Assembly (NCBI GenBank): GCA_030615365.1
Contig: JAUWZM010000030.1
Coordinates: 1-29,633, forward strand
DNA: 29,633 nt
Direction of reading: 5' to 3'
DNA from: Candidatus Aerophobota bacterium
Lineage (GTDB): Bacteria > Aerophobota > Aerophobia > Aerophobales > B3-G15
The position numbers and the translations under genes were made by a program. This document shows positions 2,679 through 29,200 of this stretch, piece by piece (position 1 is the first letter of the stretch; each line of letters opens with the position of its first letter). Below the pieces are notes generated by a model. That model saw only the letters and a list, made by a program, of their open reading frames with translations, did no database searches and was not told the origin of the DNA.

Positions 2679-4706
2679 TTAAATAATGCCTAAAGCTTTC
2701 ATAGCAGCAGCGGTAGGGTCTTTATAAAAAATAGGGTCTACCGCTTCAACAATTTCTGCAGGGACATCAAGGAAATGCCTTTTGTTCTCAATTGGGATAA
2801 GAGCCTTTTTTGCTCCATTATCTAAAGCAACTTGAAAAGGTTCTGCGAGGGAAGGCAAAGGTTTAAGATTGCCTTGAACGGTCATATCTCCTAATACCAC
2901 TGTAGCAGGTAGTACTGGCTGTTTCTTTAAAACTGAAAGCAAAGCAACAAATAAAGCTACCCCTGAAGGAGCTCCAATACCTGTACCTAAAAGATCTACT
3001 GCTTCCACATTGAAATCATGGGTATTAAAATCAGAGCCTACTCCTACCTGAGATTTTACACTCTTTAGGTAATTGAATGCTCTTTGGAAAGAATCTTTCA
3101 TTTTTCTGTCTAAAGTTCCAGAAATTTTTAATTTCCCTGTGCCAGAAGCCATATTTATCTCTACTCTATAAATTGTCGCTTTCGACTGTTCACCAATAGC
3201 TATTGTATAAACAGTTCCAGGAGAAAGAGGATCGGAAGAAATTAAGCCTTTCCCACCCTCCTCAGGTACGCCAACGAAAACTTCCTGCAGGGTCTCTTTG
3301 TCAATAATAGAAAAACTTGCCTTTGAGTATTCATAAGGCGCCAATTTCTTCAACTGCTCTTTAACTCTTCTCCTCCCCTCAAGAGCTAACTGAAGATATT
3401 CAAACAATTCTTCTTTGGTGAATTCCCCATCTGGATGTATTAACTTCAATAGTCCCGATACTGTTTTTCTTACAGCTTTTGAATCCCTGGTGTTTAAATG
3501 GGAGCCCAAATTAAAAAAGCGATCTATGCTTTCTGTAAAATTCCTTTTTCGCAATTCCTTTATCGCTTCGGCAAAATAATCAATTACAAAACCATAATGA
3601 TTCGTTAGAAATTCGTTTCTCATTTTATCTATTTCCCATCCTGGCAAATAGAAATGGATTCTATCTAAGAAAGCAATATCATCCCTTATTATCTCTGGCA
3701 TAGGAGTAAACAAATGAGAACTTTGAACTAATACATCAATTGATTGGTTTATATTACCAAACAGTACAATAGAAGCTTTTCCAGATAAAGCTTCTTTGCC
3801 TCGCGCAAAAGAGCCAGATTCACAATAAGTTTTCAAAGAAGTGATAACCTCTTTTTTCATTTTACTCAAGTCTGCAACTTCATCAAAAGCAACCACATCC
3901 CATATTCCGACAAGTCCTATCTGATTTTTACCAATATGATAAAAAAGGTTTGGCACTGTAGTGGGACCGGTAAGAAGTATTACATAGGGTGAGACATCCT
4001 GAAAAGCATAAGATTTACCTGTTCCTCGGGGACCAAATTCAACAAGATTGAAGTTACTTTCAATCAATGGAATGAATCTACACAAGTAAAGCAATTTTTT
4101 TCTTTTTGAAAGTTGAAATGGTTCAAGACCTATAGTCCGTATTAAAAAATCTATCCATTCGTCCCTGGTAAATTGCTTTCTACTTTCAATATATTCATCC
4201 ATATCAAAAGCTGCTATTTGGACAGGTTTTAACTCTCTAATCCTGAATGGACTTTTTTTTCCAGGTTCATCACCTTCATAAAAATACTCCAGCTCAACTT
4301 GAGCCCATATTCCTCCTTGAAGCAATCTTTCATATTTATTAATATAAATCTCTGGTATGTGAACATTTTTGTATCCAAAATTTATCAAAGTAGCCCAATA
4401 TTTATCCTCACTTGCTACCAATCTTACTACTACCTTATCAATAAAAGTATGCTTCCCTTTTGTTTTAACTTTAGCCTGAGCTTTCATGCTCTCATCGGAT
4501 CGAACATAATTTTCTACTAAAATGTTATTAGCCACTTTTAGTCCTGCCTCTATAGCCCTCTCATCATCTGTAGCACAATATTTCCCTAAAAGATATTCTA
4601 AAACATATACCGGGACATTTGCTCCTACTTTTACTTTTCTAACAAGATCTTTCCGGACAACTTTACCAGGAAAAACCCTGTTGGCTTTTTGATCTAAATA
4701 TGGCAT
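2679..4706 (-). CDS. brxL: BREX protein BrxL (Lon-like, AAA+)
   Basis: A 675-residue protein of the BrxL family and last gene of the operon; BrxL is required for phage restriction in type 1 BREX. The N-terminal third is BrxL-specific. An AAA+ ATPase follows, with Walker A GPRGTGKS (225-232), Walker B VVAFDEV (D275, E276), an asparagine-bearing FGNIN (sensor-1-like, 316-320) and an arginine in FLDRIHFYLPGW (R349). The C-terminus (about 540-675) is a Lon-protease-like domain with GAPSG (S580 at the nucleophile position). The lysine of the Lon dyad (GGLKEK in Lon) aligns here with SLAEP, so A620 stands in its place. Proteolysis is therefore doubtful, which fits published views that BrxL acts on DNA. 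The ATG at 4706 follows AAGGGAAA, 13 nt after pglZ. Confidence 0.93.
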   Translation of the reverse strand: MPYLDQKANRVFPGKVVRKDLVRKVKVGANVPVYVLEYLLGKYCATDDERAIEAGLKVANNILVENYVRSDESMKAQAKVKTKGKHTFIDKVVVRLVASEDKYWATLINFGYKNVHIPEIYINKYERLLQGGIWAQVELEYFYEGDEPGKKSPFRIRELKPVQIAAFDMDEYIESRKQFTRDEWIDFLIRTIGLEPFQLSKRKKLLYLCRFIPLIESNFNLVEFGPRGTGKSYAFQDVSPYVILLTGPTTVPNLFYHIGKNQIGLVGIWDVVAFDEVADLSKMKKEVITSLKTYCESGSFARGKEALSGKASIVLFGNINQSIDVLVQSSHLFTPMPEIIRDDIAFLDRIHFYLPGWEIDKMRNEFLTNHYGFVIDYFAEAIKELRKRNFTESIDRFFNLGSHLNTRDSKAVRKTVSGLLKLIHPDGEFTKEELFEYLQLALEGRRRVKEQLKKLAPYEYSKASFSIIDKETLQEVFVGVPEEGGKGLISSDPLSPGTVYTIAIGEQSKATIYRVEINMASGTGKLKISGTLDRKMKDSFQRAFNYLKSVKSQVGVGSDFNTHDFNVEAVDLLGTGIGAPSGVALFVALLSVLKKQPVLPATVVLGDMTVQGNLKPLPSLAEPFQVALDNGAKKALIPIENKRHFLDVPAEIVEAVDPIFYKDPTAAAMKALGII

Positions 4707-4719
4707 ATCATTTCCCTTT

Positions 4720-7299
4720 TTATACTATAATTTTAACATTAATATTACTAAGCTTTGCCAATTCCATCTCTGTTTCTGAATCAAGTAAATATATACCTAT
4801 GACGCCTGAAGTTACATTCTCATTTAAAATAATGGTAACAACATTGGGTTTGTTAGGTTCTAATATTACCTCTTTTGTCCCTTCGCTAAATCCATATTCC
4901 GCAGTTTCCGCTTGACCAATAGGGCTGCCCTCTTTTACGACCTGTATTCTAACTCTTTTTTCCTTGGGATTCATATCATCAAAAATAAGCAGTTCAGTTT
5001 CATAAGCTACCTTTACAGTAAATATACGATTAGTTATTGTCTTCTTGCTGATAGTTAAGAGATATTTTTCTTGGAAAGAAGACTTTTTAACAGTAAAGGC
5101 TTTCATCTTTAATTCCAGAAGGGGGATAATTACCTCTTGCAATGAGATGCCCCCATGAACATAAGGATTTTCTTCACCAGGTGTATTGAAAGCAGCGACT
5201 GTTTCAGGAAAAACAAAATCTAAATTGCATTTATATCCAAAATTGGACGCCTTGAAACGAACTGTATTTTCAGGCTCATCTCCGCCCTTTCCTATCCATA
5301 CACGTTTGTGCAAAACACAAGTTTCTCCTTTAGGAACTTTTACTTTCATATCTTTGCTTATTTCTGGACCAAATAAATAACCATGGTCAGCTGTAATAAC
5401 AAATATTTCAACTCCTAACCTCCTCAGGGTATATATAGCTCTTTTTATTTGCACAGTAATCTTATTCATAATTTCCTTAGCAATTAGTCCCTTACCACTT
5501 TCACAAATACTGTCTATTTCCTGCGAAGTGACAATAATAAAATCTGCGATATCAATTTTATCTCGTATATTTTTCCTCGGTTTTATAACCTGTTCTAATT
5601 TAAATACCTCCACCTTATAAGGGCATTCTTGAGAAAAATAATTTAATCTTTCACTTCTTTTGGATACTTTATTATTATTCACTTGAAGACAAATTTTCTT
5701 TTCTCCTCTTTCTATATCTATCTTTTCATTAAAATACAAAAGCAAAGAAAGCATCCCGAAAGAGGTTAAAGTAGGAACAGCTGCTAATGCCGGTGATATA
5801 TCTTTTTTATCATAGTTCTCTATTGAATGAAGAAAATCTTCTCCCATTTCATATCTAAATGCATCTATCAAAAAGTAGGCACATTTTTTCTTTTTCTCTA
5901 AGAAAGGTAGCAGTTTTTGTTTAAAAATATCCTTTTGATGTATAATGTTCTTTGCGCTTAAATATGCTGATGGTGAAAACTGGAAAAGAAAAAGTTTTGT
6001 CTCAATATTAATAAATTCAGAATATCTTTGTCTGCACTTGGACATAAAAATTTCTAATTTATCCTCAAATTTCCCTTCTATATCCACATCAGGATATTTT
6101 GTTTCCATCAATCGATAGTATTTATCAATTAAAGACCATTCCCAGGGCTTGTTTTTCCCAGTATAATAATTTATACACTCACTCAAACTTAAACTCTTAC
6201 CTTTAATTTCATTAAAAGCTTGATTAATAAAAATGACTAAGTCTATACTGTAACCCAAGAAAGACCATAATAAACCATAATCAGGTTCATTTTTAGCCCA
6301 AAAGGAACTCTTTCTTTTACCTATGATTTCTTTTGTAAAATTCAAACCCCTCTTTTCATTTAAATCAAGAACAAATTCTATTAACTTTTCCTCTACCACG
6401 GGAAATGTCTCACTCCTGGTTAACGCATCAGGGGGAAACTTTTCTTTTTCTATTTCATATTTTCTTTGTATTTTCTCTGCCCAGGTTTTATAACTTTTGT
6501 TAAAATCTGAACGTTTTCTCCAGGTGCCCACCAATTTTTTAACATTTTCTTTATATTCTTTCTTAGAAGGTAACTTTAAACTATGATATTTCCCTGCCAA
6601 TTCACTTTCCAAAGACTCAATGAAATCCATCATAAGAATCTTTTCAACCAATTTCTCTCTTATCTCTTCCGCCTCTTTAAGATGTTTTAGTTGAATACCT
6701 AAGTAATTATCCAGAAAGTTGACTAAGTCACTCAATAGCTTTTTTTCTTTCAAAGATTTATCGTGTTTTGTATCTGTCATAAACGACAAAATAAGAATTT
6801 CTGGATTATTAGTTTTAAATAAAGCAGACAAAGCACCTATCTGTATTGATTTTGCTCCCTCAATAATGCGCTCAATTTCATCTATAGTAATTGTTCTTTT
6901 TTCTATGCTCTTGCAAATATCTGCTACCAAATCAGAGGAAAATTTATCAGAAAGTGCCTTCTTAACAATTGTAGCAAGATCAGTGTTCTTATCCAAAGAA
7001 GCAGCAGGCTCTAAAATACAACCTGCCTTTTCTAACTCTATTAAAGGAAAATTTGTAACATCTCTACGATGCTCTATATATAGTAGAATATCCTTTTTTT
7101 CTTCGCCATTAAAATATCCCTCAGTCTTAAACCTTATTTCATAGTAACTTCCTTCATATTTTATAACTGGGACATCTATAAAATCAGATTGTCCCACTAT
7201 TTCTTTGTAAATACCCTTTGGGTCATACCAAATAACAATGCCGTATTCTTTTAGTTGCCTTTTTATTAGATTTTTTAGCTGGTTTTTAATTAAGCCCAT
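4720..7299 (-). CDS. pglZ: BREX phosphatase-like protein PglZ
   Basis: An 859-residue PglZ, the signature protein of BREX and Pgl systems. A helical N-terminal region is followed by an alkaline-phosphatase-superfamily domain at about 470-780. Visible motifs are LIDAFRYEMG (D479, metal ligand), PTLTSFGM (threonine nucleophile region, 510-517), VTSQEID (590-596) and ITADHGYLFG (D638, H639). The C-terminal 150 residues look like a beta-rich accessory domain. In BREX, PglZ is required for both methylation and defence; its substrate is not settled. The ATG is 1 nt after the brxC stop with GTGGG ahead, so the genes are coupled. Length and motifs are normal for the family. Confidence 0.95.
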   Translation of the reverse strand: MGLIKNQLKNLIKRQLKEYGIVIWYDPKGIYKEIVGQSDFIDVPVIKYEGSYYEIRFKTEGYFNGEEKKDILLYIEHRRDVTNFPLIELEKAGCILEPAASLDKNTDLATIVKKALSDKFSSDLVADICKSIEKRTITIDEIERIIEGAKSIQIGALSALFKTNNPEILILSFMTDTKHDKSLKEKKLLSDLVNFLDNYLGIQLKHLKEAEEIREKLVEKILMMDFIESLESELAGKYHSLKLPSKKEYKENVKKLVGTWRKRSDFNKSYKTWAEKIQRKYEIEKEKFPPDALTRSETFPVVEEKLIEFVLDLNEKRGLNFTKEIIGKRKSSFWAKNEPDYGLLWSFLGYSIDLVIFINQAFNEIKGKSLSLSECINYYTGKNKPWEWSLIDKYYRLMETKYPDVDIEGKFEDKLEIFMSKCRQRYSEFINIETKLFLFQFSPSAYLSAKNIIHQKDIFKQKLLPFLEKKKKCAYFLIDAFRYEMGEDFLHSIENYDKKDISPALAAVPTLTSFGMLSLLLYFNEKIDIERGEKKICLQVNNNKVSKRSERLNYFSQECPYKVEVFKLEQVIKPRKNIRDKIDIADFIIVTSQEIDSICESGKGLIAKEIMNKITVQIKRAIYTLRRLGVEIFVITADHGYLFGPEISKDMKVKVPKGETCVLHKRVWIGKGGDEPENTVRFKASNFGYKCNLDFVFPETVAAFNTPGEENPYVHGGISLQEVIIPLLELKMKAFTVKKSSFQEKYLLTISKKTITNRIFTVKVAYETELLIFDDMNPKEKRVRIQVVKEGSPIGQAETAEYGFSEGTKEVILEPNKPNVVTIILNENVTSGVIGIYLLDSETEMELAKLSNINVKIIV

Positions 7300-7300
7300 A

Positions 7301-10300
7301 TTATTCCCACTCGATAATAATTTTTTTCTCTTCTTTTAAAAGCATCTCTATCTGCTGAGTAAATTTCTTAATTTGGTTTTCAAATTCTTCTTGGTCAACA
7401 ATAACTTTATCAAAATACTCCGATAATCTTACTTTTTCTATGCTTGGATCGTTTTTTGCAATAAAGCTATCAATAGTATTTTGAATAAACTGCTCTACTG
7501 CTGAAAATGCTGAAATATCGGACCTCATAGCTGCAATGGACGCTCTACAATTTTTGCAGACATCAGAATCTTTCAAATCAAGATTTTGGCAGCATTTTGA
7601 ACCTATCTCCTTTAAAATTCTATTCTTAACCTCATCCGGTAAACTCTCCCATTCAGAAAGAATTCTAACTCTCCCATCTAACTGAGTATATAATTTATCT
7701 CTTTGAAAATGAACATCTTCATACGCTGGATAATATATCGACAAAATTTTTTCTGTATCTTTTGAAATAGTAGGTAGGCGATCGTAAAAATCCTCTGATT
7801 CGGCATTCTCTCTTAATCGTGTTAAAGTTTCCTTTATGGTTTCATCTTCCATAATTTCTTCCTCTAAACCGAAGGATATCTCAGGTAAAATCTCACGAGC
7901 TCGAGTTAAGATTTTTAAATTATTCTCTAATAAAGCTGATTCTATTCTGACAATTTTTTCTAAATTGTCTTTCAGTTCCTTGCCTTCCTCAGCTAAGAAT
8001 TTAACGCAGTCCTCTGAACTGTTATTTAATATCTGAGTCACGGTTCTTAAGAGATTTTCTACAAATTCCTTACAAGGAAGCTTTAAAACATCAGCTTTAG
8101 CTTTCATAGATAAAAGTATCTCTTTCTTTTGTGAAGACAATTCTCTTAATTTGTCTGTAATAGCATTTTCTTCTGCATCAACCTCTTTCCCGGTTATAGC
8201 TTCGTAATTTAGGCAAGCTTCTTTTATGACCTTAGGAGAAATAATCTGCTCTCGGGGCATGAATGCTGCGAGTTTAAATGCATTGTTGTTAACAATCGCT
8301 TCTCTACCCCCTGTCTCAGTATAGCTCTTGTAACGCCTACCTTGATAACTTACCTCAATCACACCCGCCCTGAATAAAGCACTCAATACTAATCTTATCA
8401 CATCCCGTTCCCATCCATAGCCCATACCTCCAAAATGTTTTTCCAATAATTTTCCAGTAACCTTTTCTCCGTATCGATGTCTTCCATTTATATAACGCAT
8501 TACTTCCTGTGCTATTGGTGCATCAACATTCATTTCATATTTATCATGTTGTTTTAGTACAAGGCTGAATCCTTCCTCATAAAAAATAGGAGGCAACCCA
8601 GAAAGATTAATAGAGGTCAACATATTCTGCGCTTCTTTTCCAGAAAAGCGTTTTGCCCCCATCCCAAATTTAGGAAACAAATCTGGAATGAGTTCATTGA
8701 TCAAACCTTTAATACTATCTGATAAAGTTTGTCCGTAACTTGAAATATCCCTTTTAACTCCTCCAAAAAAGATACTTCCTGAATAAGCAAAATCCTCCGT
8801 TTTATTTCTCAGTTTTCTGTGAGTTTTATCTTCCCTTATTTTTTCTTCACTATAGCACTTATGCTCCTCAGAAGTAAGCTGTCCTTGTGATGCAAGACGC
8901 TCATGTATTCTTATCATTTCTCTGGAGCGATACAGCTCTTCAATTAAACTGTGAATTTCCTCACTCTGAGGAAAAACCCAAAATATTTTATTTTTATTTG
9001 GATCCTGGCGTGATCCTCTCTTTTTATCCTCAGATATACCCTTAAATTCCTGTGTATCTTCTGCTATAGATAATTCAACAGTAATATCCCCATCACCGGT
9101 TAAACCCCTGCCATTTAGCATGTAAGATACAGTAAATATTTTTAAATTCTTATAGTTAAAACGCGTATATTTTGCATCTTTAAATAACTCCTCTAAGATT
9201 TCTCTACAAACCAAATTTCTATCTGCCGGCTTAGGGGCTAATTCATTTCTCTTAATATCCCAGTTTTTTTCCTGAGCAGTATATAATTTGTAACCTTCCT
9301 CACTTAACTTTATAAACTGCGCCTTCTCTAAAATCTTAATTGCCTCTTCTACTTCCTCAATGCAGGACTCTGCTCCTACATACGAATGCAGGAGTGCTGC
9401 TATATTTAAAGGACTTCGAGGAAGGTCTCTTATAAATTCAAGCAGACATATTACTTTAATAACTTTTGCAGTAAATGGCTTATCTGAAAATCTATTTTCT
9501 ATATCTAAAATATCCTTTTGTTTTTCACTGGAGATATTTCCAGATATCAAATCATAAACTTTGTCCAGGGTAACAAGAGCACCTAATTCCTGTTCAGCAA
9601 GATTAACCTTAGGATTAATAAGCATCTGCTGAGCTTGTTTTATAATAGTTCTGTTGCTTCCTCCAATATGCCGCGCTGCTCCCGGCTGAAGTCTGATACC
9701 TGACATAATATCAATAGATAGATCAATGTGATAAGGTAGGTAAGGATATAAATTTACAAAATCATCCTTTCTGGTTTCAGAATCTCTCGAAGTTCTTTCT
9801 AATTTTGTGCACTGGTTTAACCTGTGCTGGTTAGCTTCAAATAATTTACTAAGCTCTGGAATAACTGTTGCTTTTTTAGCTAAAACTCTTTTACTGGTAA
9901 CCTCAGAAATATCTGCCGGTGAGAGGTCTATCTCAGTTGGAAATCTATTTTTTAAACGGGCAAATTCTACTCTTTTATCACCAAGGGCACTTACTACCTC
10001 GTTAAGTTTTTCCTGCGAGGTTACAATTAGCCAGATAGGAGCTATTGTTTGTCTTTTCATAACCCTGTTTTTACTCTCAACTCCCAATGCCTGAACAATT
10101 GCCTGAAGATCCAGCATTTTACCAACACTACGAGAGACAAATTGCCCAACTTCATCAACGATGAATATCAAAGCGGTATTTTTTATTCTTCTTGTCATCA
10201 GGTCAAAACAACGTTTGGCAAGTTCATTTGGTGTTATATCCGCTCTCCCTCTAATATTTCCAAATTCATCCTTTGCTCCTAATGAACGAACCCATGAATC

Positions 10301-10957
10301 AGGCTGATTGTAAGTGCTCGGGTCTATTTCATAAAGAATACTGCTTGCCTCATTTAGAGCACTCGCTCTTTTGCGCCCCTTTGCCCAGGGTTGTAAGTAT
10401 TTTTTCTCATATAGTTTAATGAATTTTTCAAGTTTTTCCTCTTCCTCCAAATCCTGCTCAAGTTGAGCAATGTCAAAATCCTCAGCGTACCCTAACTCCC
10501 TTAGCAATACTTTATACATAATCTCTGTAATTCTATCAGAAGATGAACGCACACCTCTATCCATAGCCACATCAAAAATAATTGCTTTAGTAGGAATTTT
10601 TATTTTGATGTAGTCGAGGAAGTCCGAAATCCTTTTATCATTTGCCTGTCTTTTAAATAATTCTCTTGCATCTTGCCCTTTAATCTGCCTTCCTTCCAGA
10701 ATATAGCCTAAGATTTTTGCAAAACTTGATTTTCCAGACCCAAAAAAACCAGATATCCATGCTCCAATGCCTTCATGAGGACTGGAAGGTGTCTCAGAAT
10801 ATCCCCTTAAAAATTCTACAAAATGTTCTTTAATAGCATCAGTTGCTACATATTCAGATATTTCCTCATAAACAACCTCCTCATCTACCTGAGTAACTTT
10901 AATTACCTCTTCAATCTTTCTATCAATAGACCTTTCAAATATATCTCGTATTTTCAT
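7301..10957 (-). CDS. brxC: BREX P-loop ATPase BrxC
   Basis: A 1218-residue BrxC/PglY-type ATPase. The N-terminus (MKIRDIFERSIDRKIEEVIK) is characteristic. Walker A is GFFGSGKSS (70-78, K76) and Walker B is ALIFIVDEVGQF (262-273, D268/E269). The C-terminal half is charged and helical and carries a possible zinc knuckle, CC-x10-CxxC, near 1115-1137. BrxC is essential for BREX methylation and phage exclusion and probably forms part of the large DNA-bound complex with PglX and PglZ. A GGGGG-rich ribosome site precedes the ATG. The gene follows the AlbA_2 gene by 59 nt, whereas canonical type 1 loci place brxC before pglX. Confidence 0.95.
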   Translation of the reverse strand: MKIRDIFERSIDRKIEEVIKVTQVDEEVVYEEISEYVATDAIKEHFVEFLRGYSETPSSPHEGIGAWISGFFGSGKSSFAKILGYILEGRQIKGQDARELFKRQANDKRISDFLDYIKIKIPTKAIIFDVAMDRGVRSSSDRITEIMYKVLLRELGYAEDFDIAQLEQDLEEEEKLEKFIKLYEKKYLQPWAKGRKRASALNEASSILYEIDPSTYNQPDSWVRSLGAKDEFGNIRGRADITPNELAKRCFDLMTRRIKNTALIFIVDEVGQFVSRSVGKMLDLQAIVQALGVESKNRVMKRQTIAPIWLIVTSQEKLNEVVSALGDKRVEFARLKNRFPTEIDLSPADISEVTSKRVLAKKATVIPELSKLFEANQHRLNQCTKLERTSRDSETRKDDFVNLYPYLPYHIDLSIDIMSGIRLQPGAARHIGGSNRTIIKQAQQMLINPKVNLAEQELGALVTLDKVYDLISGNISSEKQKDILDIENRFSDKPFTAKVIKVICLLEFIRDLPRSPLNIAALLHSYVGAESCIEEVEEAIKILEKAQFIKLSEEGYKLYTAQEKNWDIKRNELAPKPADRNLVCREILEELFKDAKYTRFNYKNLKIFTVSYMLNGRGLTGDGDITVELSIAEDTQEFKGISEDKKRGSRQDPNKNKIFWVFPQSEEIHSLIEELYRSREMIRIHERLASQGQLTSEEHKCYSEEKIREDKTHRKLRNKTEDFAYSGSIFFGGVKRDISSYGQTLSDSIKGLINELIPDLFPKFGMGAKRFSGKEAQNMLTSINLSGLPPIFYEEGFSLVLKQHDKYEMNVDAPIAQEVMRYINGRHRYGEKVTGKLLEKHFGGMGYGWERDVIRLVLSALFRAGVIEVSYQGRRYKSYTETGGREAIVNNNAFKLAAFMPREQIISPKVIKEACLNYEAITGKEVDAEENAITDKLRELSSQKKEILLSMKAKADVLKLPCKEFVENLLRTVTQILNNSSEDCVKFLAEEGKELKDNLEKIVRIESALLENNLKILTRAREILPEISFGLEEEIMEDETIKETLTRLRENAESEDFYDRLPTISKDTEKILSIYYPAYEDVHFQRDKLYTQLDGRVRILSEWESLPDEVKNRILKEIGSKCCQNLDLKDSDVCKNCRASIAAMRSDISAFSAVEQFIQNTIDSFIAKNDPSIEKVRLSEYFDKVIVDQEEFENQIKKFTQQIEMLLKEEKKIIIEWE

Positions 10958-11016
10958 TTATAATACCCCCATTGGCAAATAAATGTGTACTTACGCCCAT
11001 ATTATTTAATCCTCTT

Positions 11017-12540
11017 TTACCTCTTTGCTCTGCCTAACAGTGATTTGCCTGCTTTGGTAATTTTGTATTTTTGAAGGCGGCTCTTTCGTTTATCAGGAAC
11101 AGTATAGTTAATTAGTTTTTTCTCAAGCAACACTGCGATAGCTTTCTTCAACCCCCCAGAAACTGTGCTGTGTCCCATTTTTTTTGCAATTTCTTTCTTT
11201 GATAAAGACTCAATCGAGCATTCAGAAAGAATTCTCTGTTGTGTTGCTGTTATCTCCACTTGGGCCTCCACTTGGGCCTCCACTTGTTTTCTAACCTTTG
11301 CCTCTGGATGTACATACAAAACTGCTGTAAAATAGATTCTTCCATCATCTGTTTTAAAAAAAGGTTCAGAAGAGCCATTTTCCTTTAATGCTTTTCTAAT
11401 CTTAGGAAACCCTGTGCCTCTCCCCTCAGTAAGATGCAGTTCCTTTAAAAAATCTCCAATACGACGGTTGCGGTATTTTCTTGCCACTACTCTTCCACTC
11501 ATCAAATTATTTCTATTAAGCGGAGGCAATGGCCCGGGGTAGCTAATAATTTCAATTCTATCGGGAAAAACTCTTACCTCAACTGGAGATTGATCCCTGT
11601 AACTGCGATGATAAACAGCATTAACCAATGCCTCCTCTATTGCCGCGTAAGGATAGTTAAAGAACCTTACCGCTTCTGCTTTAGCTGGAACTTTACGCAC
11701 TAATTCAAATATAACCTCATTTTTGAGGTAACTTAACGCATCTCTTACCTGCTGATGGAGCGGTCCTCCGAAGATTTTCTCTTTGAAACTATCGCCTACC
11801 TCATCTTGAAACTCAACAACATCAATACGGGCACCTCCGAAAAACCGTTCCGGACTATCGTTGAAAAAAAGAAGCCCTGCATTTTTTGGCTTTAAATACT
11901 CCTTCGGACCCTCAGCAATATTCATCCTGCGGCATAACCTAGGAAAGGGGATCTTAGTAGATTCTTCTAATAAAGCACTCTTAACTTCTGCCAGATAAGA
12001 TTGAATTAAAGTGAAGTTTAAGTCTGTAATTTCTGCTGTGTGGTTAATCTGGTCATCAAAAGGAACTTGGTTTGCCATTAACAAAAGTTCGCGTTCTTCG
12101 GATTCAGTAGCTTTTTTAGTGGAAGAATATCTTCTTATGTAGTAAGCATACTCTGGCTCCTTGGTCAGGTTTTTAGGTGCTTTATAAGGCCTGGTAGCAC
12201 CACCTGGACACCAGATAACTAATATTATTTTATTCTGAAACTCAACTGGTTCAGCAACAGGAAAATACTCAGGTCTTAATCTATGGCAAAGATTAAGCAA
12301 CTCTTTCTGGATAGTGACAACTTCTTTTTGAGAAAGCCCTACCGGGGGAAGAATAGGATGGTCATTATCTTCTTTAATTCCAACTATAATATACCCTCCA
12401 CCCCAATTATTAAAATCATTAGCAAAGGCACAGATAGTATGTAAAACTCTAACAGGGTTCCACCCTTCCTTAAACTCAATCCTTTCCCATTCAACAGTTC
12501 TGCCGTTTATTAACTCATTAATATTTGTCGGTAAAGCCAT
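11017..12540 (-). CDS. AlbA_2 / HATPase / winged-helix regulator-like protein inside BREX
   Basis: A 507-residue protein of the COG2865 type. An AlbA_2 (Schlafen-type) domain lies at about 15-150 (VEWERIEFKEG, GGGYIIVGI). A GHKL/HATPase_c_4 ATP-binding domain lies at about 290-405, with the N-box EEALVNAVYHRSY (302-314), PGPLPP (335-340) and GRGTGFPKI (373-381). A short QVEAQVEAQVE repeat (419-429) links to a C-terminal winged helix (about 433-500). Such proteins are usually called ATP-binding transcriptional regulators, but Schlafen-type AlbA_2 domains can also act on nucleic acid. It is not a core BREX component. Its place between pglX and brxC, co-directional with short gaps, suggests a regulatory or accessory defence role. 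Confidence 0.85.
   Translation of the reverse strand: MALPTNINELINGRTVEWERIEFKEGWNPVRVLHTICAFANDFNNWGGGYIIVGIKEDNDHPILPPVGLSQKEVVTIQKELLNLCHRLRPEYFPVAEPVEFQNKIILVIWCPGGATRPYKAPKNLTKEPEYAYYIRRYSSTKKATESEERELLLMANQVPFDDQINHTAEITDLNFTLIQSYLAEVKSALLEESTKIPFPRLCRRMNIAEGPKEYLKPKNAGLLFFNDSPERFFGGARIDVVEFQDEVGDSFKEKIFGGPLHQQVRDALSYLKNEVIFELVRKVPAKAEAVRFFNYPYAAIEEALVNAVYHRSYRDQSPVEVRVFPDRIEIISYPGPLPPLNRNNLMSGRVVARKYRNRRIGDFLKELHLTEGRGTGFPKIRKALKENGSSEPFFKTDDGRIYFTAVLYVHPEAKVRKQVEAQVEAQVEITATQQRILSECSIESLSKKEIAKKMGHSTVSGGLKKAIAVLLEKKLINYTVPDKRKSRLQKYKITKAGKSLLGRAKR
11255..11286. repeat. In-frame 12-bp tandem repeat
   Basis: The unit TCCACTTGGGCC occurs twice in full plus 8 bases of a third copy, encoding QVEA repeats between the ATPase and winged-helix domains. 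The units are identical, and 12-bp steps preserve the reading frame, so copy number could change by slippage without breaking the protein. Similar QVxxQV repeats occur in relatives of this family (recalled). Confidence 0.85.
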
Positions 12541-12578
12541 TTATATATAATCCTTTTGAAAATATTATTATTTACTTG

Positions 12579-15500
12579 TTAATCACTTACATCTTTAAAA
12601 ATCCTGCTTATCTGTGACCACTCGTATTTTCCCCCTTGCAACTCTTTAAAATACTTCTCTGGCTCTTTCCAGGGTATGAGTTTATAAAGTGGTACCATAT
12701 TAAGAATTACTCCGTCATCAATGTTTGGTTTATATCCTAAAGCAATAACCTCATTGATATCTTTCTTGAAATGCCCAAGTTCCTCAAGCAACTCCTCGCC
12801 CCTAACAATAAGTTTTTCTATATCTCTTTTTTCTCTTCCCTCCACTTTGTCTTTCTTAATATGCAGCTCTGAGAGTCGTGATTTCTCAAAATTTATTTTT
12901 GGTTCTGTATATTTGTTTATCAAAGAATAGAGGGTATCCTGGGTAAATTTAAGGTTATATAAATAAAATCCATAGTTTTTCTTACCTGATAAAAAGAGCC
13001 AGTAAATTGGCCTTTTTTTATACATCTTAGCATGATATTTTATGAAAAAATCAGAGATTAAAAACTTTCTTAAATCACCACCTAACACTTCAATTGCTTC
13101 CTCTCCTTTCTCATCACCAAGAGTTTTTTCTAATGCCTCTTTAATTCTTATCGGAGCATCCTCAGGATGACCTTCATCAAAAACAAGTATACCATCATCA
13201 TCTATCTGAATTCCCTCCACTTCAAACCTTCCCATAAGAACACCCAAAGCAAAAGACACATATTTTACAGCAAGCTGATATCTTTCTTCTTTTCTCGCAA
13301 ACTTGTTTTGCTTTATATATTTAAATACAGTTTCAGGGTGAAAACCTGAAGCAAGACAGATTTCCTCCAAAGTAAGGTATCGTGTGACTCCTCTTCCTCT
13401 TTCTTTAGATTCTATTTTCTGATTTTCGGATTCCTTATTTTTATTTAAAACTTGTTTAGGGATATGTTTTTGCAAATAGAGGCTTTCAATAATTTTTAAC
13501 CCCTCGCTATTTAAATCGCTAACTTTTTTAAGATTTCCTGGAAGTTCCCCAAACTCTCTTTCAATCTGTTCAATATCTTCTCTGTGGATATCATACAACT
13601 CATAAACTGCATTGGAAATCTGCGTCTCTAAAATTGCTAATTCTTTCTCCCTTTTTAGAATGTCTGTAAAACCAGTATCCCAGGAAGGTGGCTTCTCAAA
13701 TTCCCAGGAGTTCTCATCCATCCCTACCATCTCTTTTTTTATCTGGATGCATCGTTTGACTTTTTCTTCTATTTCTCTTGCAAGCTCAGGATTTTTGGTT
13801 TCCTCGGGGAAAGGAATGCGGGCAATGTCGCCGACCTGGTATGCAACAGTAGGACTAATCACCTTAATTAAGTAAGTAGACATTTTAGAATTTAATATCC
13901 CAAGTAATAGGTAAACACTGGTTTTATGGGGAAAAATTGAAGAACCAATAACATCAAAGATAAAACCTTGTGGAAGATAACGAACACTTAAATTGCTAAT
14001 GGTAAGAAATGAATAGGTAACTCCTTCTTTGAAATAATAATCTTGATTCTGTGGCCTTGAAGCTAATCTACTGTTTTTAAAAACGTGTTTTATTTCATAT
14101 CCCTCCTTTTCCCAGTTCACCACATACTCCTGATTACCATACCATCTATTTACCGCGCCACCCTTCATATAGGGAAACCACTTTCTTTCTGATCTTTTCG
14201 CTTCTTCATGGTTAGGACAGTTAAAACGAATACTATTGTGCCCAACCTCCCACCACAAGCGAAGGAATCTAAAGTTATCAGCAGTTGCAAGACCTTGACA
14301 GGGTTTAGCAACCTCTTCCAACGGTTTGTTTTCCTCAAACAATCCCCTTATTCTATCACTTATCCAATACACAAATGGCCAGCCGGGGATAGCTTTTAAC
14401 TTTTCCTGCTCTACGATAAATACTCTGTCAGATTCCTCACCAGAAAGATATTTGTTCAAAGATTCTTCAAAAGCAATGCGCTTTTGTTCCTCATTTTCAT
14501 CTACCAGGCGAAAATAGACTCCTTGAGGACTTATGGTGTTACTTTCATATTTACCAAGAGTATACATTGCAAATCCTTGTGCTGTTTTATTAGCAACATC
14601 AAACTCTGTTTTTGTCCCAAGATGGGCAAGAGACTCAATGAAAGTATCTTCAATAATTTCTTTTCTTATTTGTTCATGAGATGAGGTAAACATGAACGAA
14701 TGTATTGTTACCATACCGCAAAAACCACTTTGAGAGGTTAACTCAAGACATCTATCTATAAAAACTGTATAAAGGTCTCCTGATTTCCCTTGATATAATT
14801 CTTTAAGTTCATCAGCCAATGCTTTATTCCAATTTCTCCTTCCAGAATAAGGAGGATTTGTCACCACCACATCGTGCTTTCTCATCAAAGCATCCATAAG
14901 ATACATCCCTTTTTTTGACTCTTGGACGAGGAAACTATCTCCATTGGCTCTCTCAATAAACTCATTTATGGCTTTTATTAATTCTTCTTTAGCTTCTTTC
15001 CAGGCAAGATCTTCTTTAAGGAATAGTTGCCTTTCCCCTTCTGTCATAAATAGCTCTTGCTGAGCTTCATATTTTCTTACAAATTCCCTCCTGTGTTCAG
15101 ATAAAAACTCATTGATAGTTTCTTCAATTTTTAATAAGGACCCTAAATAATAAGCTTTTCTTAACTCAGGTAAAATTTTTTTAAGCAGTTCTTTGATAAT
15201 TTCATATCTCGGCGAGATAGAATCGACAAACTCATCGATGGCTCCTTTAGAAAAGCTTGGAATATCTGTATGAACCAGGTTATATTTTTGAATAGAAATA
15301 TTTTTGTTTTTAGTTTTTGCCTTTAAATATAAAGAAAGCGCCGATAACTGAATTGAGCGAAGGTCAATATCAACACCAAAGAGATTATTCTCAATAATAG
15401 CAGAGGGAATATTTTCTTCTTTTTCAATAGATGCTTTTTGAGGCCAACCAACGGTTCCTGCATTTTGCAGCTCCTCAAGATACATATCGTAAAACAAATC

Positions 15501-16436
15501 AAAGGCAACCATTCCAAAATGCATTGTTCCACAGGCAGGGTCGAGCAAAGTTATCTCTTTAACCGGTTTTAAAGGGATTTTTTCTCTATCACTTTCATTG
15601 GGAACATAATATTTTAATTTTTCTCTTATTTTTGTATCCGGGTGCATTCTAATCCAGAGGCGTGCTAATGTATTCTCTACAAGAAATCTTACAATCCATT
15701 TGGGAGTAAAAATTTGTGTGGCAGGGGCTATATCTTTTAGACCCATTTTCTTTTTTTGACTATAAATCTTATCAAACACCTCTTCTTTCTCATCTTCTAT
15801 AAAGTACTGGTAAACCCAGCCAATTACCTCATCTTTATTCCAGATATGGATGAGTTTATCCTGATTGATAAGCTCAAAAATCTTAATTAATGTTTTTTCT
15901 CTGGGAAATAATAAACTCACCAGAGCTTCTGGATCAAAAAGAACCTTTATCTCCTCATCACAAGATGCATTTTTGCATTGACAGTGGAAAAAATTTTTAT
16001 AAGCCTGGTAAACTTTTTCCTGTTTCCAGAGTTTCTCATCTTCCGGATTATCAGCCAGATAAAATATAAAGGCATTGGAGTTAAACCCGCGAGATACTGT
16101 TTGCTTTATAATCTTTCTTTTCTCCATCTCCATCATTTTGAAAGCTACAAAACGGTTAAGGTAAGTAAAGGCATATTCTTTTGCAAAGCTCCAAATAATT
16201 TCTTTTTTGGATTCCCCGCTTTCGGTTTTATATTTAACAAATTCCTCAAGTTTCTTCCTAACCCGAAGATCAAAAGAATTTTCCTTTAGATTTGGAAGAA
16301 AAGATAAATCTTCAAATATCCCATCTCTTTGCAAGCCATAAATTCCTTCTAACTGAGAAAAACAATCTTCAATTAAAATCTTTTTTACCTCAGGTATAAA
16401 TTTAGACTCTTTAATTATTTGCTGGATGTTTGTCAT
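12579..16436 (-). CDS. pglX: BREX adenine-specific DNA methyltransferase PglX
   Basis: A 1285-residue type 1 PglX, predicted to add N6-methyladenine to host DNA at a non-palindromic site as the BREX self mark. The N-terminal helical region includes a cysteine cluster, CQCKNASC (152-159). The methyltransferase core shows TQIFTPKWIVRFLVENTL (motif X, 240-257), LLDPACGTMHFG (motif I, 297-308), GVDID (354-358) and the catalytic VVVTNPPYSG (NPPY at 527-530). The long C-terminal half should hold specificity and phage-inhibitor contact regions, including an HTH-like stretch around LEEICLASGFHPETVFKYI. It starts 8 nt after brxB and appears full length and intact. Its sequence specificity cannot be read from the protein. 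Confidence 0.95.
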   Translation of the reverse strand: MTNIQQIIKESKFIPEVKKILIEDCFSQLEGIYGLQRDGIFEDLSFLPNLKENSFDLRVRKKLEEFVKYKTESGESKKEIIWSFAKEYAFTYLNRFVAFKMMEMEKRKIIKQTVSRGFNSNAFIFYLADNPEDEKLWKQEKVYQAYKNFFHCQCKNASCDEEIKVLFDPEALVSLLFPREKTLIKIFELINQDKLIHIWNKDEVIGWVYQYFIEDEKEEVFDKIYSQKKKMGLKDIAPATQIFTPKWIVRFLVENTLARLWIRMHPDTKIREKLKYYVPNESDREKIPLKPVKEITLLDPACGTMHFGMVAFDLFYDMYLEELQNAGTVGWPQKASIEKEENIPSAIIENNLFGVDIDLRSIQLSALSLYLKAKTKNKNISIQKYNLVHTDIPSFSKGAIDEFVDSISPRYEIIKELLKKILPELRKAYYLGSLLKIEETINEFLSEHRREFVRKYEAQQELFMTEGERQLFLKEDLAWKEAKEELIKAINEFIERANGDSFLVQESKKGMYLMDALMRKHDVVVTNPPYSGRRNWNKALADELKELYQGKSGDLYTVFIDRCLELTSQSGFCGMVTIHSFMFTSSHEQIRKEIIEDTFIESLAHLGTKTEFDVANKTAQGFAMYTLGKYESNTISPQGVYFRLVDENEEQKRIAFEESLNKYLSGEESDRVFIVEQEKLKAIPGWPFVYWISDRIRGLFEENKPLEEVAKPCQGLATADNFRFLRLWWEVGHNSIRFNCPNHEEAKRSERKWFPYMKGGAVNRWYGNQEYVVNWEKEGYEIKHVFKNSRLASRPQNQDYYFKEGVTYSFLTISNLSVRYLPQGFIFDVIGSSIFPHKTSVYLLLGILNSKMSTYLIKVISPTVAYQVGDIARIPFPEETKNPELAREIEEKVKRCIQIKKEMVGMDENSWEFEKPPSWDTGFTDILKREKELAILETQISNAVYELYDIHREDIEQIEREFGELPGNLKKVSDLNSEGLKIIESLYLQKHIPKQVLNKNKESENQKIESKERGRGVTRYLTLEEICLASGFHPETVFKYIKQNKFARKEERYQLAVKYVSFALGVLMGRFEVEGIQIDDDGILVFDEGHPEDAPIRIKEALEKTLGDEKGEEAIEVLGGDLRKFLISDFFIKYHAKMYKKRPIYWLFLSGKKNYGFYLYNLKFTQDTLYSLINKYTEPKINFEKSRLSELHIKKDKVEGREKRDIEKLIVRGEELLEELGHFKKDINEVIALGYKPNIDDGVILNMVPLYKLIPWKEPEKYFKELQGGKYEWSQISRIFKDVSD

Positions 16437-16444
16437 CTTAACTG

Positions 16445-17029
16445 TTACCTATTGTAAATGTTTACATGATAACTTCCCCCAACACCTCTTGAGGGCATTC
16501 CCATATATTTCAAACTTGTGATCCCTTCCATTTTTCCTGGATAAAAAAGTACCGTAGGTACAAGTGTTCTTCCTTTCATTTCATCTAAAAGAGCAGAAAT
16601 TCTGTAACTGTTAGGGGCAAATATTCCCGCTCTTACAAGGAATACAATATCTTTGGCCGAGTCTAATCCCCTCAATTTTCTCTCTAACAAATCAGGGATA
16701 GGAGAGTAATCAGGATCGGAAAGTATTATATTCAAAGACTCCTGCGCTTTTAAAAAACCAAATTCCTTTTCTTCTTTTATAATTTGTTCTTTTCCTCCTT
16801 CACTTTTTATTGCTTTAAAGAATAAATCTGATAGGGATATTATATGAACTCGTTTGCCTTTGTTATTAAGTCGAGTTGCAAGCAGTTTTACTTCTTTGCG
16901 CATTTCAAATTCCTTCTCAGGGTCGTATCGGAATATAGCAAAAGGCAAATCATGATAGGGACTTATTTTTAACTCTTTTGAACTTAAATCACGCTCTAAT
17001 TGCTCAAGCGCTTCTTTCAATGATGGCAT
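16445..17029 (-). CDS. brxB: BREX protein BrxB (DUF1788)
   Basis: A 194-residue DUF1788 protein of usual BrxB length. Recognisable features are the N-terminal HDLPFAIFRYDPEKEFEMR and the C-terminal PTVLFYPGKMEGITSLKYMG stretches. It is a small conserved BREX component needed for defence; its biochemical role is unknown. The ATG at 17029 follows GGAGG with 6-nt spacing and lies inside the end of brxA (26-bp overlap), showing translational coupling. No catalytic motif is visible. Confidence 0.92.
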   Translation of the reverse strand: MPSLKEALEQLERDLSSKELKISPYHDLPFAIFRYDPEKEFEMRKEVKLLATRLNNKGKRVHIISLSDLFFKAIKSEGGKEQIIKEEKEFGFLKAQESLNIILSDPDYSPIPDLLERKLRGLDSAKDIVFLVRAGIFAPNSYRISALLDEMKGRTLVPTVLFYPGKMEGITSLKYMGMPSRGVGGSYHVNIYNR

Positions 17030-17846
17030 TCACTACCTCCTCAAAGGCATTTTGGAAAAATTCAACTCTTACTATTTCTCCAACTTGCTCATACCTGAGA
17101 TATTTATCCTGATGCGCTTCCATAAAAAGACGCTCTATCTCCTGTGAATTTAGCAAAAACAATTTCCAGCAAGGATGTTCAATTATTCCTTTGCCTAAAA
17201 CCCCTTCTTTGAAAATAAAAAATGTAATATAAAAAAACACCGGTAAGGGGAAAAATTTAGGTGCTATTTTTCTCTTTCTTTTACCTTCAAGTATTCCAAA
17301 TCCTTTAAGAGCTGAAAATAACCCAGAAGCTACTCTCTTAATAACAGAATCTCCCCATTTTACAGGTATAGTTTTGTCCTGAACACCCTTTTCGATAAAG
17401 TCTGAAACATCTTTAGAATATATCTCTAAGATTCCCTTTTTGTATCTGGGAAGTAGAACCTTGCTAATAAAATCACCAATTAAAGGTTCATTGAGAGCGC
17501 AGTAAAGGTAAAGAATTGGCCGTAAAATTTCAATTGGAACATCTGCTTGCACAAGTTGCTTTAAAAAAGCCCAATGATTTTTAGGATAGCCACTAATATA
17601 TCGTGGCAAGAAAATATATCTTATAACATCTGAAACTCTTTTACGGCTTTTCTTCCCTAACACATTTTTTGAGATTAATTCTTTGATGAGATCTTTTTGT
17701 GGAATGTCATTGCGCCAGTATTTAAGAAGTATTTTTATATCTTCTAATACTGCTCCCCCTTTTTGCAAATTTGAAGTATACTTTGTTGGCCTAAGCAACA
17801 TACTGTTTATATCTGCTCTTCTTTTTTCTCCATCCGTCAAATTCAT
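17004..17846 (-). CDS. brxA: BREX protein BrxA (DUF1819)
   Basis: A 280-residue BrxA/DUF1819 protein, first gene of the BREX operon; family members are small helical DNA-binding proteins. I chose the ATG at 17846 because GGAGG lies 10 nt upstream. A longer frame opens at TTG 17942 without a ribosome site, and those 32 extra codons look like out-of-frame sequence of a decayed upstream HTH gene. The N-terminus reads MNLTDGEKRRADINSML and continues through LLKYWRNDIPQKDLIKEL, as in BrxA. It is slightly long for the family. The transcript probably starts upstream of 17846, in sequence now replaced or altered by an IS21-type end. I could not pick a convincing -35/-10 pair. Confidence 0.85.
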   Translation of the reverse strand: MNLTDGEKRRADINSMLLRPTKYTSNLQKGGAVLEDIKILLKYWRNDIPQKDLIKELISKNVLGKKSRKRVSDVIRYIFLPRYISGYPKNHWAFLKQLVQADVPIEILRPILYLYCALNEPLIGDFISKVLLPRYKKGILEIYSKDVSDFIEKGVQDKTIPVKWGDSVIKRVASGLFSALKGFGILEGKRKRKIAPKFFPLPVFFYITFFIFKEGVLGKGIIEHPCWKLFLLNSQEIERLFMEAHQDKYLRYEQVGEIVRVEFFQNAFEEVVNAIIERSA

Positions 17847-17989
17847 TCTTATCAAACCTCCACTGTTTTCCAAATCTAAAAGCTGAGATTTTACTCTTTT
17901 GAGGTGTATGTCCACCTTCCCTGTTCTGTACAACTTCCTCAACTACCAAAGATTGCTTCTCTAAAGCTTCCTTTAAAGTAAGTATGGAT
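17791..17989 (-). pseudogene. Decayed excisionase-like HTH_17 gene overlapping brxA start
   Basis: Minus-strand frame ending at TAG 17791-17793. Its last part reads KISAFRFGKQWRF then DKNEFDGWRKKKSR, the wing and C-terminal helix of MerR/excisionase-type HTH_17 proteins. Its first visible part, ILTLKEA, matches the family's N-terminal helix, but the middle is garbled. A piece in the next frame (LRKLYRTGKV) fits the missing recognition helix, so two frameshifts are likely. No start codon precedes ILTLKEA; an IS21-type end lies exactly there. The stop falls 53 nt inside brxA. It may once have encoded a regulator of the operon, or be debris of an integrated element. Confidence 0.55.
17857..17861 (-). 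promoter_or_regulatory. Ribosome binding site deciding the brxA start
   Basis: GGAGG on the minus strand, 10 nt before ATG 17846. It supports the shorter brxA start over the TTG at 17942. Confidence 0.7.
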
Positions 17990-17990
17990 A

Positions 17991-18014
17991 TGCATCGAAA
18001 ATTGACCCCCCTGG
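17991..18014 (+). mobile_element. IS21-type terminal sequence next to BREX
   Basis: TGCATCGAAAATTGACCCCC resembles the TG-initiated ends of IS21-family elements, which carry internal AATTGACCCC repeats. It reads rightward, so the element would extend away from BREX. It abuts the truncated HTH_17 gene. No istA or istB of normal length follows. Confidence 0.5.
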
Positions 18015-18883: not shown

Positions 18884-18958
18884 GATGTTAGCGCAGCGAT
18901 GGTTTACACCCATGTATTGAATCGTGGAGGAAGAGGAGTTCTTAAGTCCGGTCGATAG
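18884..18958 (+). pseudogene. C-terminal remnant of integron-type tyrosine recombinase
   Basis: The last 24 codons before TAG 18956-18958 read DVSAAMVYTHVLNRGG plus RGVLKSGR. This matches the C-terminal box of integron integrases (DVSTTMIYTHVLxRGG), including the catalytic tyrosine in the YTHVL segment. The upstream bases in this frame (KVIFR) fit only loosely to the family's LLGHR, and the rest of the enzyme is absent. It is therefore a dead fragment. It points toward the cassette at 19007 and lies 49 nt from it. Confidence 0.75.
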
Positions 18959-19006
18959 ACTTTTGAATTTAATACCATTGGGAGGAATTTACTTATACTG
19001 CAAAAA

Positions 19007-19624
19007 ATGCAATATTTGTCAGATCACTTAGGCTGTCTAATACATATTAGAGGGACTTATTTCATGTTCAAAAGACTTCATAGGTGGGCGATTGAAGTAG
19101 ATCAAAATCACCAAAGCTGTAATATTGAAGCACAACGTTCGTTGATCCGTAATTTTGGCAAGTCGCTATATCAGTCGGTTGATGATTCATCGAGCTCTCT
19201 TCATCCACTCCAATACGTCTACTTCACAAGAATTTTTCGGCCTCAAAGAGATAAAATGGGTGCATACGTCCGGCTTCATTTCTTCGTCGAAGAAAATTTA
19301 TCGCATCCTACGGAGGATGAGCTGGACAAGAGATTGGATGTATTGAAAAGCCAAAGTAAGGTTTTCGCAATAAAAAACCAGTTAAAGGACGGCATCGAGG
19401 AAGCAAACCTGAAAGGAGCGAAGGATTTTCCAGACTTATATTACAGATATGTGCACCATGTAAGCCGAATGGCAGTAGAATTATTTAATAGAGAAGCAAT
19501 CGAAGTCGAGATTGACAAACTTCTGTGGACCTGGGCTCACAATCTTTTCAATCTCTTACGTGGTTTCGGCGTGTCAGTCCTTGAATTTGATCCAAGCGCA
19601 GTAGTCAGAAGCTATAGGATATAA
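19007..19624 (+). CDS. Integron gene-cassette ORF, unknown function
   Basis: A 205-codon ORF of no family I recognise, mixed alpha/beta in composition, with no signal peptide or membrane segment. It includes YVRLHFFVEENL and a helical FPDLYYRYVHHVSRMAVELF stretch. Its stop lies 8 nt before an attC-like site, the usual geometry of a gene cassette. The first ATG (19007) is poorly spaced from GGGAGG at 18980. A second in-frame ATG at 19064 has AGAGGG about 9 nt ahead and is a good alternative, giving 186 residues. GC is a little higher than in the BREX genes. Cassettes of this kind often carry defence or toxin functions, but nothing in the sequence shows one. Confidence 0.6.
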   Translation: MQYLSDHLGCLIHIRGTYFMFKRLHRWAIEVDQNHQSCNIEAQRSLIRNFGKSLYQSVDDSSSSLHPLQYVYFTRIFRPQRDKMGAYVRLHFFVEENLSHPTEDELDKRLDVLKSQSKVFAIKNQLKDGIEEANLKGAKDFPDLYYRYVHHVSRMAVELFNREAIEVEIDKLLWTWAHNLFNLLRGFGVSVLEFDPSAVVRSYRI

Positions 19625-19631
19625 GTAGACC

Positions 19632-19702
19632 CTCTATCAAGCCGCTCAAGATGACGTGGGTACAGCTTCGCTGACCCACGCAGCTTAGCGCCAGCGTTAG
19701 AC
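19632..19702 (+). other. attC recombination site
   Basis: The right core is GTTAGAC (19696-19702), a perfect GTTRRRY preceded by GCGCCAGC. The left side reads CTCTATC-AAGCCGCTCAAG; the left core is two bases off the complement of the right core. Between them CGTGGGT (19655-19661) and ACCCACG (19674-19680) form a perfect stem, extended by CAGC-TTC-GCTG. At about 71 bp with this layout it is a typical attC hairpin, somewhat decayed on the left. Confidence 0.8.
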
Positions 19703-19764
19703 ATCTATAATAAATTATAATAGTATTGAAGAAAGTTTTTCTTTAGATTCACAGGAGATACCTA

Positions 19765-20199
19765 TTGCAATTCACACTATATCGAGGAGTTTTAGCAACG
19801 TTGTTTTGTGCACTTTTTATAATCTGTTCATTGCCACATATTGCAGCTTCTGAAAATAATGAGCCTTCACTAAGTGAATTATTTCAAAGCTTCCGATCTA
19901 GAATTGTTCATATTGGACTGTTATCAACAGGCGAAAAGCAAGATGCTTTAACCATTGAAGAGTGGCACAAGAAAAATAGCCATTTTAAAAAGATAATCAA
20001 ATTATTTATAAGCGTTCCTACATGTGAGTATATGTTTACCTATCTCAAAGAGCATAATGCTCCAAGATCTGGTAATGCAGAGAACTCTATCAAACTCCTC
20101 AGATCCTGGGAAGACCCCAGATATGGTTTTAGAACTGCTAAAGGACTTCAAGATCATCTAAAGCTGTATCAGAAAATGAAATATTTAGGGCAAATATAA
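19765..20199 (+). CDS. Second cassette-like ORF, predicted secreted protein
   Basis: A 144-residue product of unknown family. The start is TTG at 19765 with AGGAGA 6 nt before it. The N-terminus is a clear Sec signal peptide, with a hydrophobic core VLATLFCALFIICSLPHI and likely cleavage after AAS (about residue 29). The mature part is charged and helical with one cysteine (VPTCEYMFTYLKEH). It follows the attC site by 62 nt, so it could be the next cassette in the array. No attC-like site is visible after its stop, so this cassette is incomplete or the array ends here. Confidence 0.55.
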   Translation: MQFTLYRGVLATLFCALFIICSLPHIAASENNEPSLSELFQSFRSRIVHIGLLSTGEKQDALTIEEWHKKNSHFKKIIKLFISVPTCEYMFTYLKEHNAPRSGNAENSIKLLRSWEDPRYGFRTAKGLQDHLKLYQKMKYLGQI

Positions 20200-20356
20200 T
20201 TTAAAACAAAAAATTTCCCCAAAATTAGCATCTGACAACGGAAAGAGAGAAAAAATTGCAACAAATTTGAGCAAGTTACGCTATCTAATCATTCATACTG
20301 GAAGGGGATTTCTCACCCCTCTCCTATTAAGAAAAGAGATTACCAGGAGGATAGCA

Positions 20357-29146: not shown

Positions 29147-29160
29147 ATAGGACTCCTCAT

Positions 29161-29196: not shown

Positions 29197-29200
29197 GTTT

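What the first reader, a model, noticed from the sequence alone, without database searches (positions are those of the whole stretch)
18884..20199. Integron remnant: recombinase tail, cassette and attC in 'reverse' orientation
The last 24 codons of an integron-type integrase lie on the same strand as, and just before, a cassette-like ORF whose stop is 8 nt from a recognisable attC. In classical integrons intI points away from the array. Same-strand orientation is the arrangement described for reverse integrons such as that of Treponema denticola. A second secreted-protein ORF follows. This gives a cassette source next to a defence locus.
Basis: partly seen in the sequence, partly recalled or inferred. 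Interest (0 to 1): 0.72.

Follow-up and report, generated by a model that had tools for sequence, protein, structure and literature searches.

The report
Decayed integron with one cassette
A broken piece of an integron (a bacterial gene-collecting device) is left beside a phage-defence locus: the tail end of its recombinase, one captured gene and that gene's recombination site; this is mostly ordinary, although the captured gene belongs to an undescribed protein family with the predicted fold of an antibiotic-peptide enzyme.

The parts
18884..18940 (+). intI remnant: in-frame C-terminal piece DVSAAMVYTHVLNRGGRGV
   Evidence: TIGR02249 profile 290-309/315, E=6.7e-4; 16 of 19 residues identical to the IntI of L113
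18945..18968 (+). out-of-frame continuation of the intI remnant, SPVDRLLN, matching the SPxD ending of other IntI proteins
   Evidence: six-frame reading; SPxD is seen in 9 of 9 IntI ends and 26 of 30 printed ends (the other four are cut off or show only a C-terminal extension)
19027..19033 (+). possible decayed attI/cassette boundary CTTAGGC (one mismatch to GTTRRRY); not significant, one of six such near-matches in 18884-19063
19064..19624 (+). cassette ORF, 186 aa, unannotated family with the predicted fold of the LanB glutamate-elimination domain
19632..19702 (+). attC: R'' CTCTATC 19632-19638 (worn), L'' 19644-19652 with extra C at 19647, L' 19682-19689, R' GTTAGAC 19696-19702
   Evidence: model R1 24.7 bits E=1.3e-4; hairpin; alignment with six other attC
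19933..20196 (+). ISL3-type transposase C-terminal fragment inside ORF 19765-20199; not a secreted protein
   Evidence: 23 relatives other than the window's own, 66-84% identical over 34-61% of the ORF; of five scanned, P0038 and P0039 score above the PF01610 cut-off and P0035 below it
2679..17942 (-). neighbouring BREX locus (brxA, brxB, pglX, AlbA/HATPase gene, brxC, pglZ, brxL), context only
   Evidence: Pfam and PADLOC matches

Best explanation
This is the decayed head of a small chromosomal integron. An integron integrase gene once stood on the + strand and was lost except for its last codons, which are frameshifted. One gene cassette and its attC remain directly downstream on the same strand, and a transposase fragment sits past the attC. 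The simplest ancestral layout is the reverse one (intI transcribed towards attI and the array). With no integrase left here, the cassette is fixed unless an IntI is supplied in trans. The cassette encodes a free-standing protein with the predicted fold of the glutamate-elimination domain of class I lantibiotic dehydratases. I infer that it acts as an enzyme or binding protein on a peptide or aminoacyl substrate. Shown: attC, IntI piece, order and strand, no other IntI or attC match of note in the window. Inferred: reverse ancestry, immobility, and the cassette protein's activity.
For: attC by covariance model and folding, and rare in controls. IntI piece by curated family model, by its only PDB match, IntI4, at E=0.044, and by other IntI proteins. 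The ORF stop lies 7 nt before the attC, as in ordinary cassettes (recalled). Same-strand examples with unbroken intI: L110 (intI + at 8235-9170, a dihydrofolate-reductase-like ORF named by eye, attC + at 10183-10252) and L125 (intI - ends at 2988, several ORFs on -, attC - at 935-1006). Wu et al. (PMC3607928, passages read) describe intI transcribed towards attI in Treponema. The cassette family gave no confirmed locus in the reference genomes or IMG/VR by pattern scan.
Against: Only about 19 in-frame residues of intI remain, and nothing above controls lies upstream. No attI is recognisable. The IntI tail most similar to the window's (L113) belongs to a classical integron. Phylum of G001: 3 classical (L052, L075, L076; L075 also has one attC past intI's 3' end on the opposite strand), 2 with the strong attC convergent (L077, L078), 0 same-strand. 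Phylum of G016: 4 classical (L113, L116, L118, L121) against 2 same-strand (L110, L125) among 39 loci searched with the model. The spacing from intI to the next ORF differs between the window, L110 and L125. The host is unknown.
Confidence: 0.6

Rival explanations
1. A classical integron was rearranged: a piece of intI was inverted or moved next to a cassette, so the same-strand order says nothing about the ancestor.
For: Classical order is the more frequent in the loci examined. A truncated intI piece with an attC about 60 nt past its 3' end, on the opposite strand, occurs in L078 (intI 863-1330 +, attC 1391-1449 -), so intI fragments do end up in odd places. A transposase fragment lies next to the cassette in the window.
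Against: It needs an extra event; the order and strands in the window match those of two loci with unbroken intI.
Confidence: 0.3
2. A lone attC cassette inserted at a secondary site near a chance leftover of an integrase; the two were never one integron.
For: Single attC in 29.6 kb; no recognisable attI.
Against: Two rare integron features within 0.7 kb, in an order and orientation known from integrons.
Confidence: 0.08
3. Chance resemblance of one or both parts.
For: The tail is short and the R'' box is worn.
Against: E=1.3e-4 for attC; E=6.7e-4 for the tail against 18,950 families; the two are adjacent.
Confidence: 0.02

Closest known systems
Reverse integrons of Treponema (T. denticola and relatives)
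   Same: intI and cassette on one strand, intI upstream of the cassette (PMC3607928 passages)
   Different: here intI is a fragment, there is one attC, no attI is recognisable, and the host is not shown to be a spirochaete
Same-strand integron loci L110 (G116) and L125 (G104) in the phylum of G016 (record title of L017: candidate division KSB1)
   Same: intI, ORF(s), attC all on one strand; the attC of L110 shares the L''/L' layout
   Different: unbroken integrase; L110's IntI carries a C-terminal extension of about 60 residues; different cassette genes and spacing
attC sites of the integrons in G001 and G030 (e.g. L052 3321-3383)
   Same: CGCT-AAG-TGACG arm and GCAGCTTAGC arm of L052 3321-3383 shared with the window attC
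   Different: those sites sit mostly in classical arrays and have canonical R'' boxes
Glutamate-elimination domain of class I lantibiotic dehydratases (MibB, MadB, NisB) and pyridine synthases (TbtD, PbtD)
   Same: predicted fold over nearly the whole 186 aa; H159, N163, L165 and G167 fall on the H961..N965..L..G motif of NisB by eye
   Different: free-standing and small; not matched by sequence profiles; NisB R786 corresponds to H72, a histidine in 18 of 22 members

Membership tests
Integron (complete) | intact intI gene | tested here: not met
   only a frameshifted C-terminal piece; no other IntI sequence above controls
Integron (complete) | attC with R''/L''/L'/R' and hairpin with an unpaired base in L'' | tested here: met
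   R'' CTCTATC is worn (5 of 7 pairs with R'); the other strand folds about as well (z -4.10), so bottom-strand bias was not shown
Integron (complete) | attI beside intI | tested here: inconclusive
   no exact GTTRRRY in 18884-19063; six one-mismatch words
Integron (complete) | array of two or more cassettes | tested here: not met
   one attC in the window; beyond the window not testable
Reverse integron | intI and cassettes on the same strand, intI transcribed towards the array | tested here: inconclusive
   order and strand fit, but only an intI fragment remains, so rearrangement is not excluded
Gene cassette | single ORF ending just before an attC in the same orientation | tested here: met
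   stop 19624, attC from 19632
LanB glutamate-elimination domain (PF14028) | Pfam profile match | tested here: not met
   no PF14028 match for any of 22 members at E<=10
LanB glutamate-elimination domain (PF14028) | fold | tested here: met
LanB glutamate-elimination domain (PF14028) | catalytic residues R786, R826, H961 of NisB (PMC4979651 passage) | tested here: inconclusive
   H159 is invariant and fits H961; H72 stands at R786; K117 possibly at R826; mapped by motif and by the printed alignment of L109 with NisB, not by superposition

The most novel reading that the evidence does not exclude
Integron cassettes are a vehicle for an undescribed family of free-standing, 186-residue proteins with the LanB glutamate-elimination / aza-cyclase fold, so that peptide-tailoring chemistry spreads as single-gene cassettes among uncultured bacteria.
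Probability: 0.35. Interest if true: 0.6.

Novelty: new member of a known kind. Interest (0 to 1): 0.35.

Why it matters
As an integron it adds a dead remnant next to a BREX locus and little else. It led to two same-strand (reverse-type) integron loci outside spirochaetes. It also points to a cassette-borne protein family whose predicted fold suggests peptide-modifying chemistry that sequence profiles miss. Integron cassette genes are mostly of unknown function (stated in PMC3607928, passage), so a structural lead for one family is useful.

Tried and rejected
Rejected: second secreted-protein ORF (transposase-like end). Second attC at 20190-20270 (no model match). XerC/D-type tail: both NCBIfam matches of the tail are integron integrases, and the only PDB match at E<=10 is IntI4.

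An isolated-IntI-tail 'recurrence' idea (noted) was dropped: the tail in L051 is cut by a contig end, and L053 is a larger deleted remnant. An intI box-I lookalike at 18812-18886 upstream of the tail was dropped: by mean score only 3 and 5 of 2000 shuffles of it reached it, by best score 8 and 11, and 1 of 1756 other window 25-mers reached it by mean score (13 by best); but in the wider scan its mean of 21.2 is below 24.3 reached in a control region and 22.8 in an unrelated minus-strand stretch.

DNA similarity of 17943-19063 to plasmids and of the cassette protein to plasmids: none. Cassette family in reference genomes and IMG/VR by pattern scan: pattern matches but no confirmed locus. In the phylum of G001 (single protein as query) 0 of 19, in that of G016 0 of 81, in that of G002 0 of 84 (alignment as query); the tool warns that an empty answer without a positive control shows little. 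IntI at E<=1e-80 in the phylum of G014: 0 of 45, same warning. Rfam, gathering cut-offs: nothing. Profile comparison of A1 with a LanB_C protein of L109: no match. Host: no close relative in the reference contigs (best PorV match over most of its length 40%); the 19 held genomes of the phylum of G001 all have PorV matches, 1 to 26 each, best identity among listed rows 47%, which is suggestive only.

My notes counted L077 as classical. Its one strong attC (6550-6610, minus, E=5e-11) is convergent with intI; two weak ones (E 0.07 and 0.23) lie in classical position. The report counts it as convergent. My own box scan of the 39 loci also gave hits that the model did not support at E<=0.1 and that I left out of the orientation count: L140 (classical position), L141 (same strand, 4 kb downstream), L111, L131, L139 and L148.

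Four of the 25 hits (P0007, P0011, P0018, P0024; P0007 appears to be the window's own) were left out of alignment A1 as partial. Six of the 45 IntI matches were not fetched (one of them, G016:C111, had been fetched as L055).

Full report
What is there. On the + strand, outside the 5' end of a BREX locus on the - strand (2679-17942), the window has a short IntI-type C-terminus (18884-18940), a 186-codon ORF (19064-19624), an attC (19632-19702) and a transposase-like end (19933-20196).

The attC. Rfam gave no match at gathering cut-offs, so I built a model. Nine attC sites from integrons of two genomes (G001, G030), none from the window, gave model R1. With filters off over both strands of the window, R1 matches 19632-19702 at 24.7 bits, E=1.3e-4; the next three matches are at 8.5, 8.2 and 7.7 bits. 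An independent scan for paired R and L boxes finds four candidates in the window, of which only this one folds well. At equal cut-offs it finds 3 in 0.999 Mb strand-bases of 35 other loci and 1 in 3.56 Mb of shuffled window. The bottom strand folds at -18.7 kcal/mol, z=-3.85; the top strand also folds well, z=-4.10. R' is canonical (GTTAGAC), R'' is worn (CTCTATC), and L'' has an unpaired extra base as in the other sites.

The integrase. In the frame of 18884 the peptide matches TIGR02249 (integron integrase) at positions 290-309 of 315, E=6.7e-4, with no Pfam match. For a profile of IntI translations from other genomes it is the best stretch of the window's stop-free frames (E=0.0037; next 1.7), and the IntI of L113 is identical at 16 of 19 residues. 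The SPxD ending of other IntI proteins (9 of 9; 26 of 30 printed ends, the other four cut off or showing only an extension) is present one frame away at 18945-18968, so the stop at 18956 is a decay product. The 0.94 kb upstream to brxA holds nothing else that rises above controls.

Orientation. Wu et al. (PMC3607928, passages) state that typical integrons have intI opposite to the cassettes and that Treponema has intI transcribed towards attI; a passage of PMC9668308 says that typical Spirochaetota IntIs are generally in reverse orientation. In the phylum of G001, 6 of 19 genomes have IntI at E<=1e-70. Where R1 found attC near intI the order was classical in L052, L075 and L076 (L075 also has one attC past intI's 3' end on the opposite strand); in L077 and L078 the strong attC are convergent with intI, L077 having two weak ones in classical position. 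L071-L074 gave no attC match with R1. In the phylum of G016, 34 of 82 genomes have IntI at E<=1e-80. Of 39 fetched loci, R1 (E<=0.1) found attC in six: L113, L116, L118 and L121 (classical), L110 and L125 (same strand). L110 reads intI with a C-terminal extension of about 60 residues, an ORF that looks by eye like a dihydrofolate-reductase-family protein, then attC. Same-strand loci are therefore real but the minority, and the window's order is compatible with, not proof of, a reverse integron.

The cassette protein. One search gave 25 proteins, one of them apparently the window's own; the alignment used 21 plus the window. No Pfam or NCBIfam family is matched by more than 3 of the 22 members, and those matches are weak. 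No confirmed locus appeared in the GTDB-representative contigs or IMG/VR by pattern scans, or in three phyla by the genome search, although the last three have no positive control. The AlphaFold model is confident (pLDDT 89, pTM 0.84). Foldseek's first three hits are NisB chains (best E 0.0065, probability 1.00, TMq 0.59-0.63); it gives no match at E<=0.001. Among the 997 chains then aligned, VIA-align ranks MibB 14.8, MadB 13.2 and 12.9, NisB 12.3 twice, TbtD 10.4, an aza-cyclase 9.4, TbtD 8.9 and PbtD 8.3; the first protein outside this group is at 8.1. Sequence comparison does not support the link: no PDB match of note with the profile, no PF14028 match, no profile match with a LanB_C protein. 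By motif, H159 (22 of 22) fits NisB H961, R56 (22 of 22) R775, R70 (21 of 22) R784, and H72 (18 of 22) stands where NisB has R786. NisB R786A, R826A and H961A transfer glutamates to NisA without elimination (PMC4979651, passage). H961A abolishes dehydration, R784A slightly lowers it and R775A leaves it normal (PMC4341554, passages). The chemistry may therefore differ from glutamate elimination. A search for papers with 'integron', 'gene cassette' and 'lanthipeptide' gave three, none on this subject by title and start of abstract (listing only).

The second ORF. ORF 19765-20199 has 23 relatives other than the window's own that match its C-terminal part at 66-84% identity over 34-61% of the ORF. 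Of five scanned, P0038 and P0039 score above the cut-off of PF01610 (ISL3-type transposase), P0035 below it, two not at all. The signal-peptide-like start is not shared by the ten relatives aligned.

Verdict. A genuine but ordinary integron remnant with one cassette; the reverse layout is plausible, not proven. The part worth following is the cassette-encoded protein family.

Noticed in passing
window 2679-17942 (-): Complete-looking BREX gene set (brxA, brxB, pglX, brxC, pglZ, brxL) with an AlbA_2/HATPase gene between pglX and brxC.
   Followed up: partly
L110 8235-10252 (G116), with similar IntI ends in L111 and L112: IntI with a C-terminal extension of about 60 residues in L110 and similar ends in the other two; in L110 the cassette and attC follow on the same strand, a reverse-type locus outside spirochaetes.
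   Followed up: partly
L125 223-3977 (G104): Second same-strand locus: intI and several ORFs on the minus strand, attC at 935-1006.
   Followed up: partly
L078 863-2175 (G030): Truncated intI whose 3' end lies about 60 nt from an attC on the opposite strand, array facing intI.
   Followed up: no
L052 4748-5683 (G001:C43): IntI with an in-frame TAA near its start.
   Followed up: no
window 2010-2348 (+): ORF that looks by eye like the start of an IS21-type transposase (recalled, not searched).
   Followed up: no
window 28754-29632 (-): Pieces that look by eye like a DNA methyltransferase start and a helix-turn-helix protein (not searched).
   Followed up: no
L109 1465-2487 (G068): Free-standing Lant_dehydr_C protein of 340 aa (E=2.6e-44), the only match at E<=1e-8 among 81 genomes of the phylum of G016.
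   Followed up: partly
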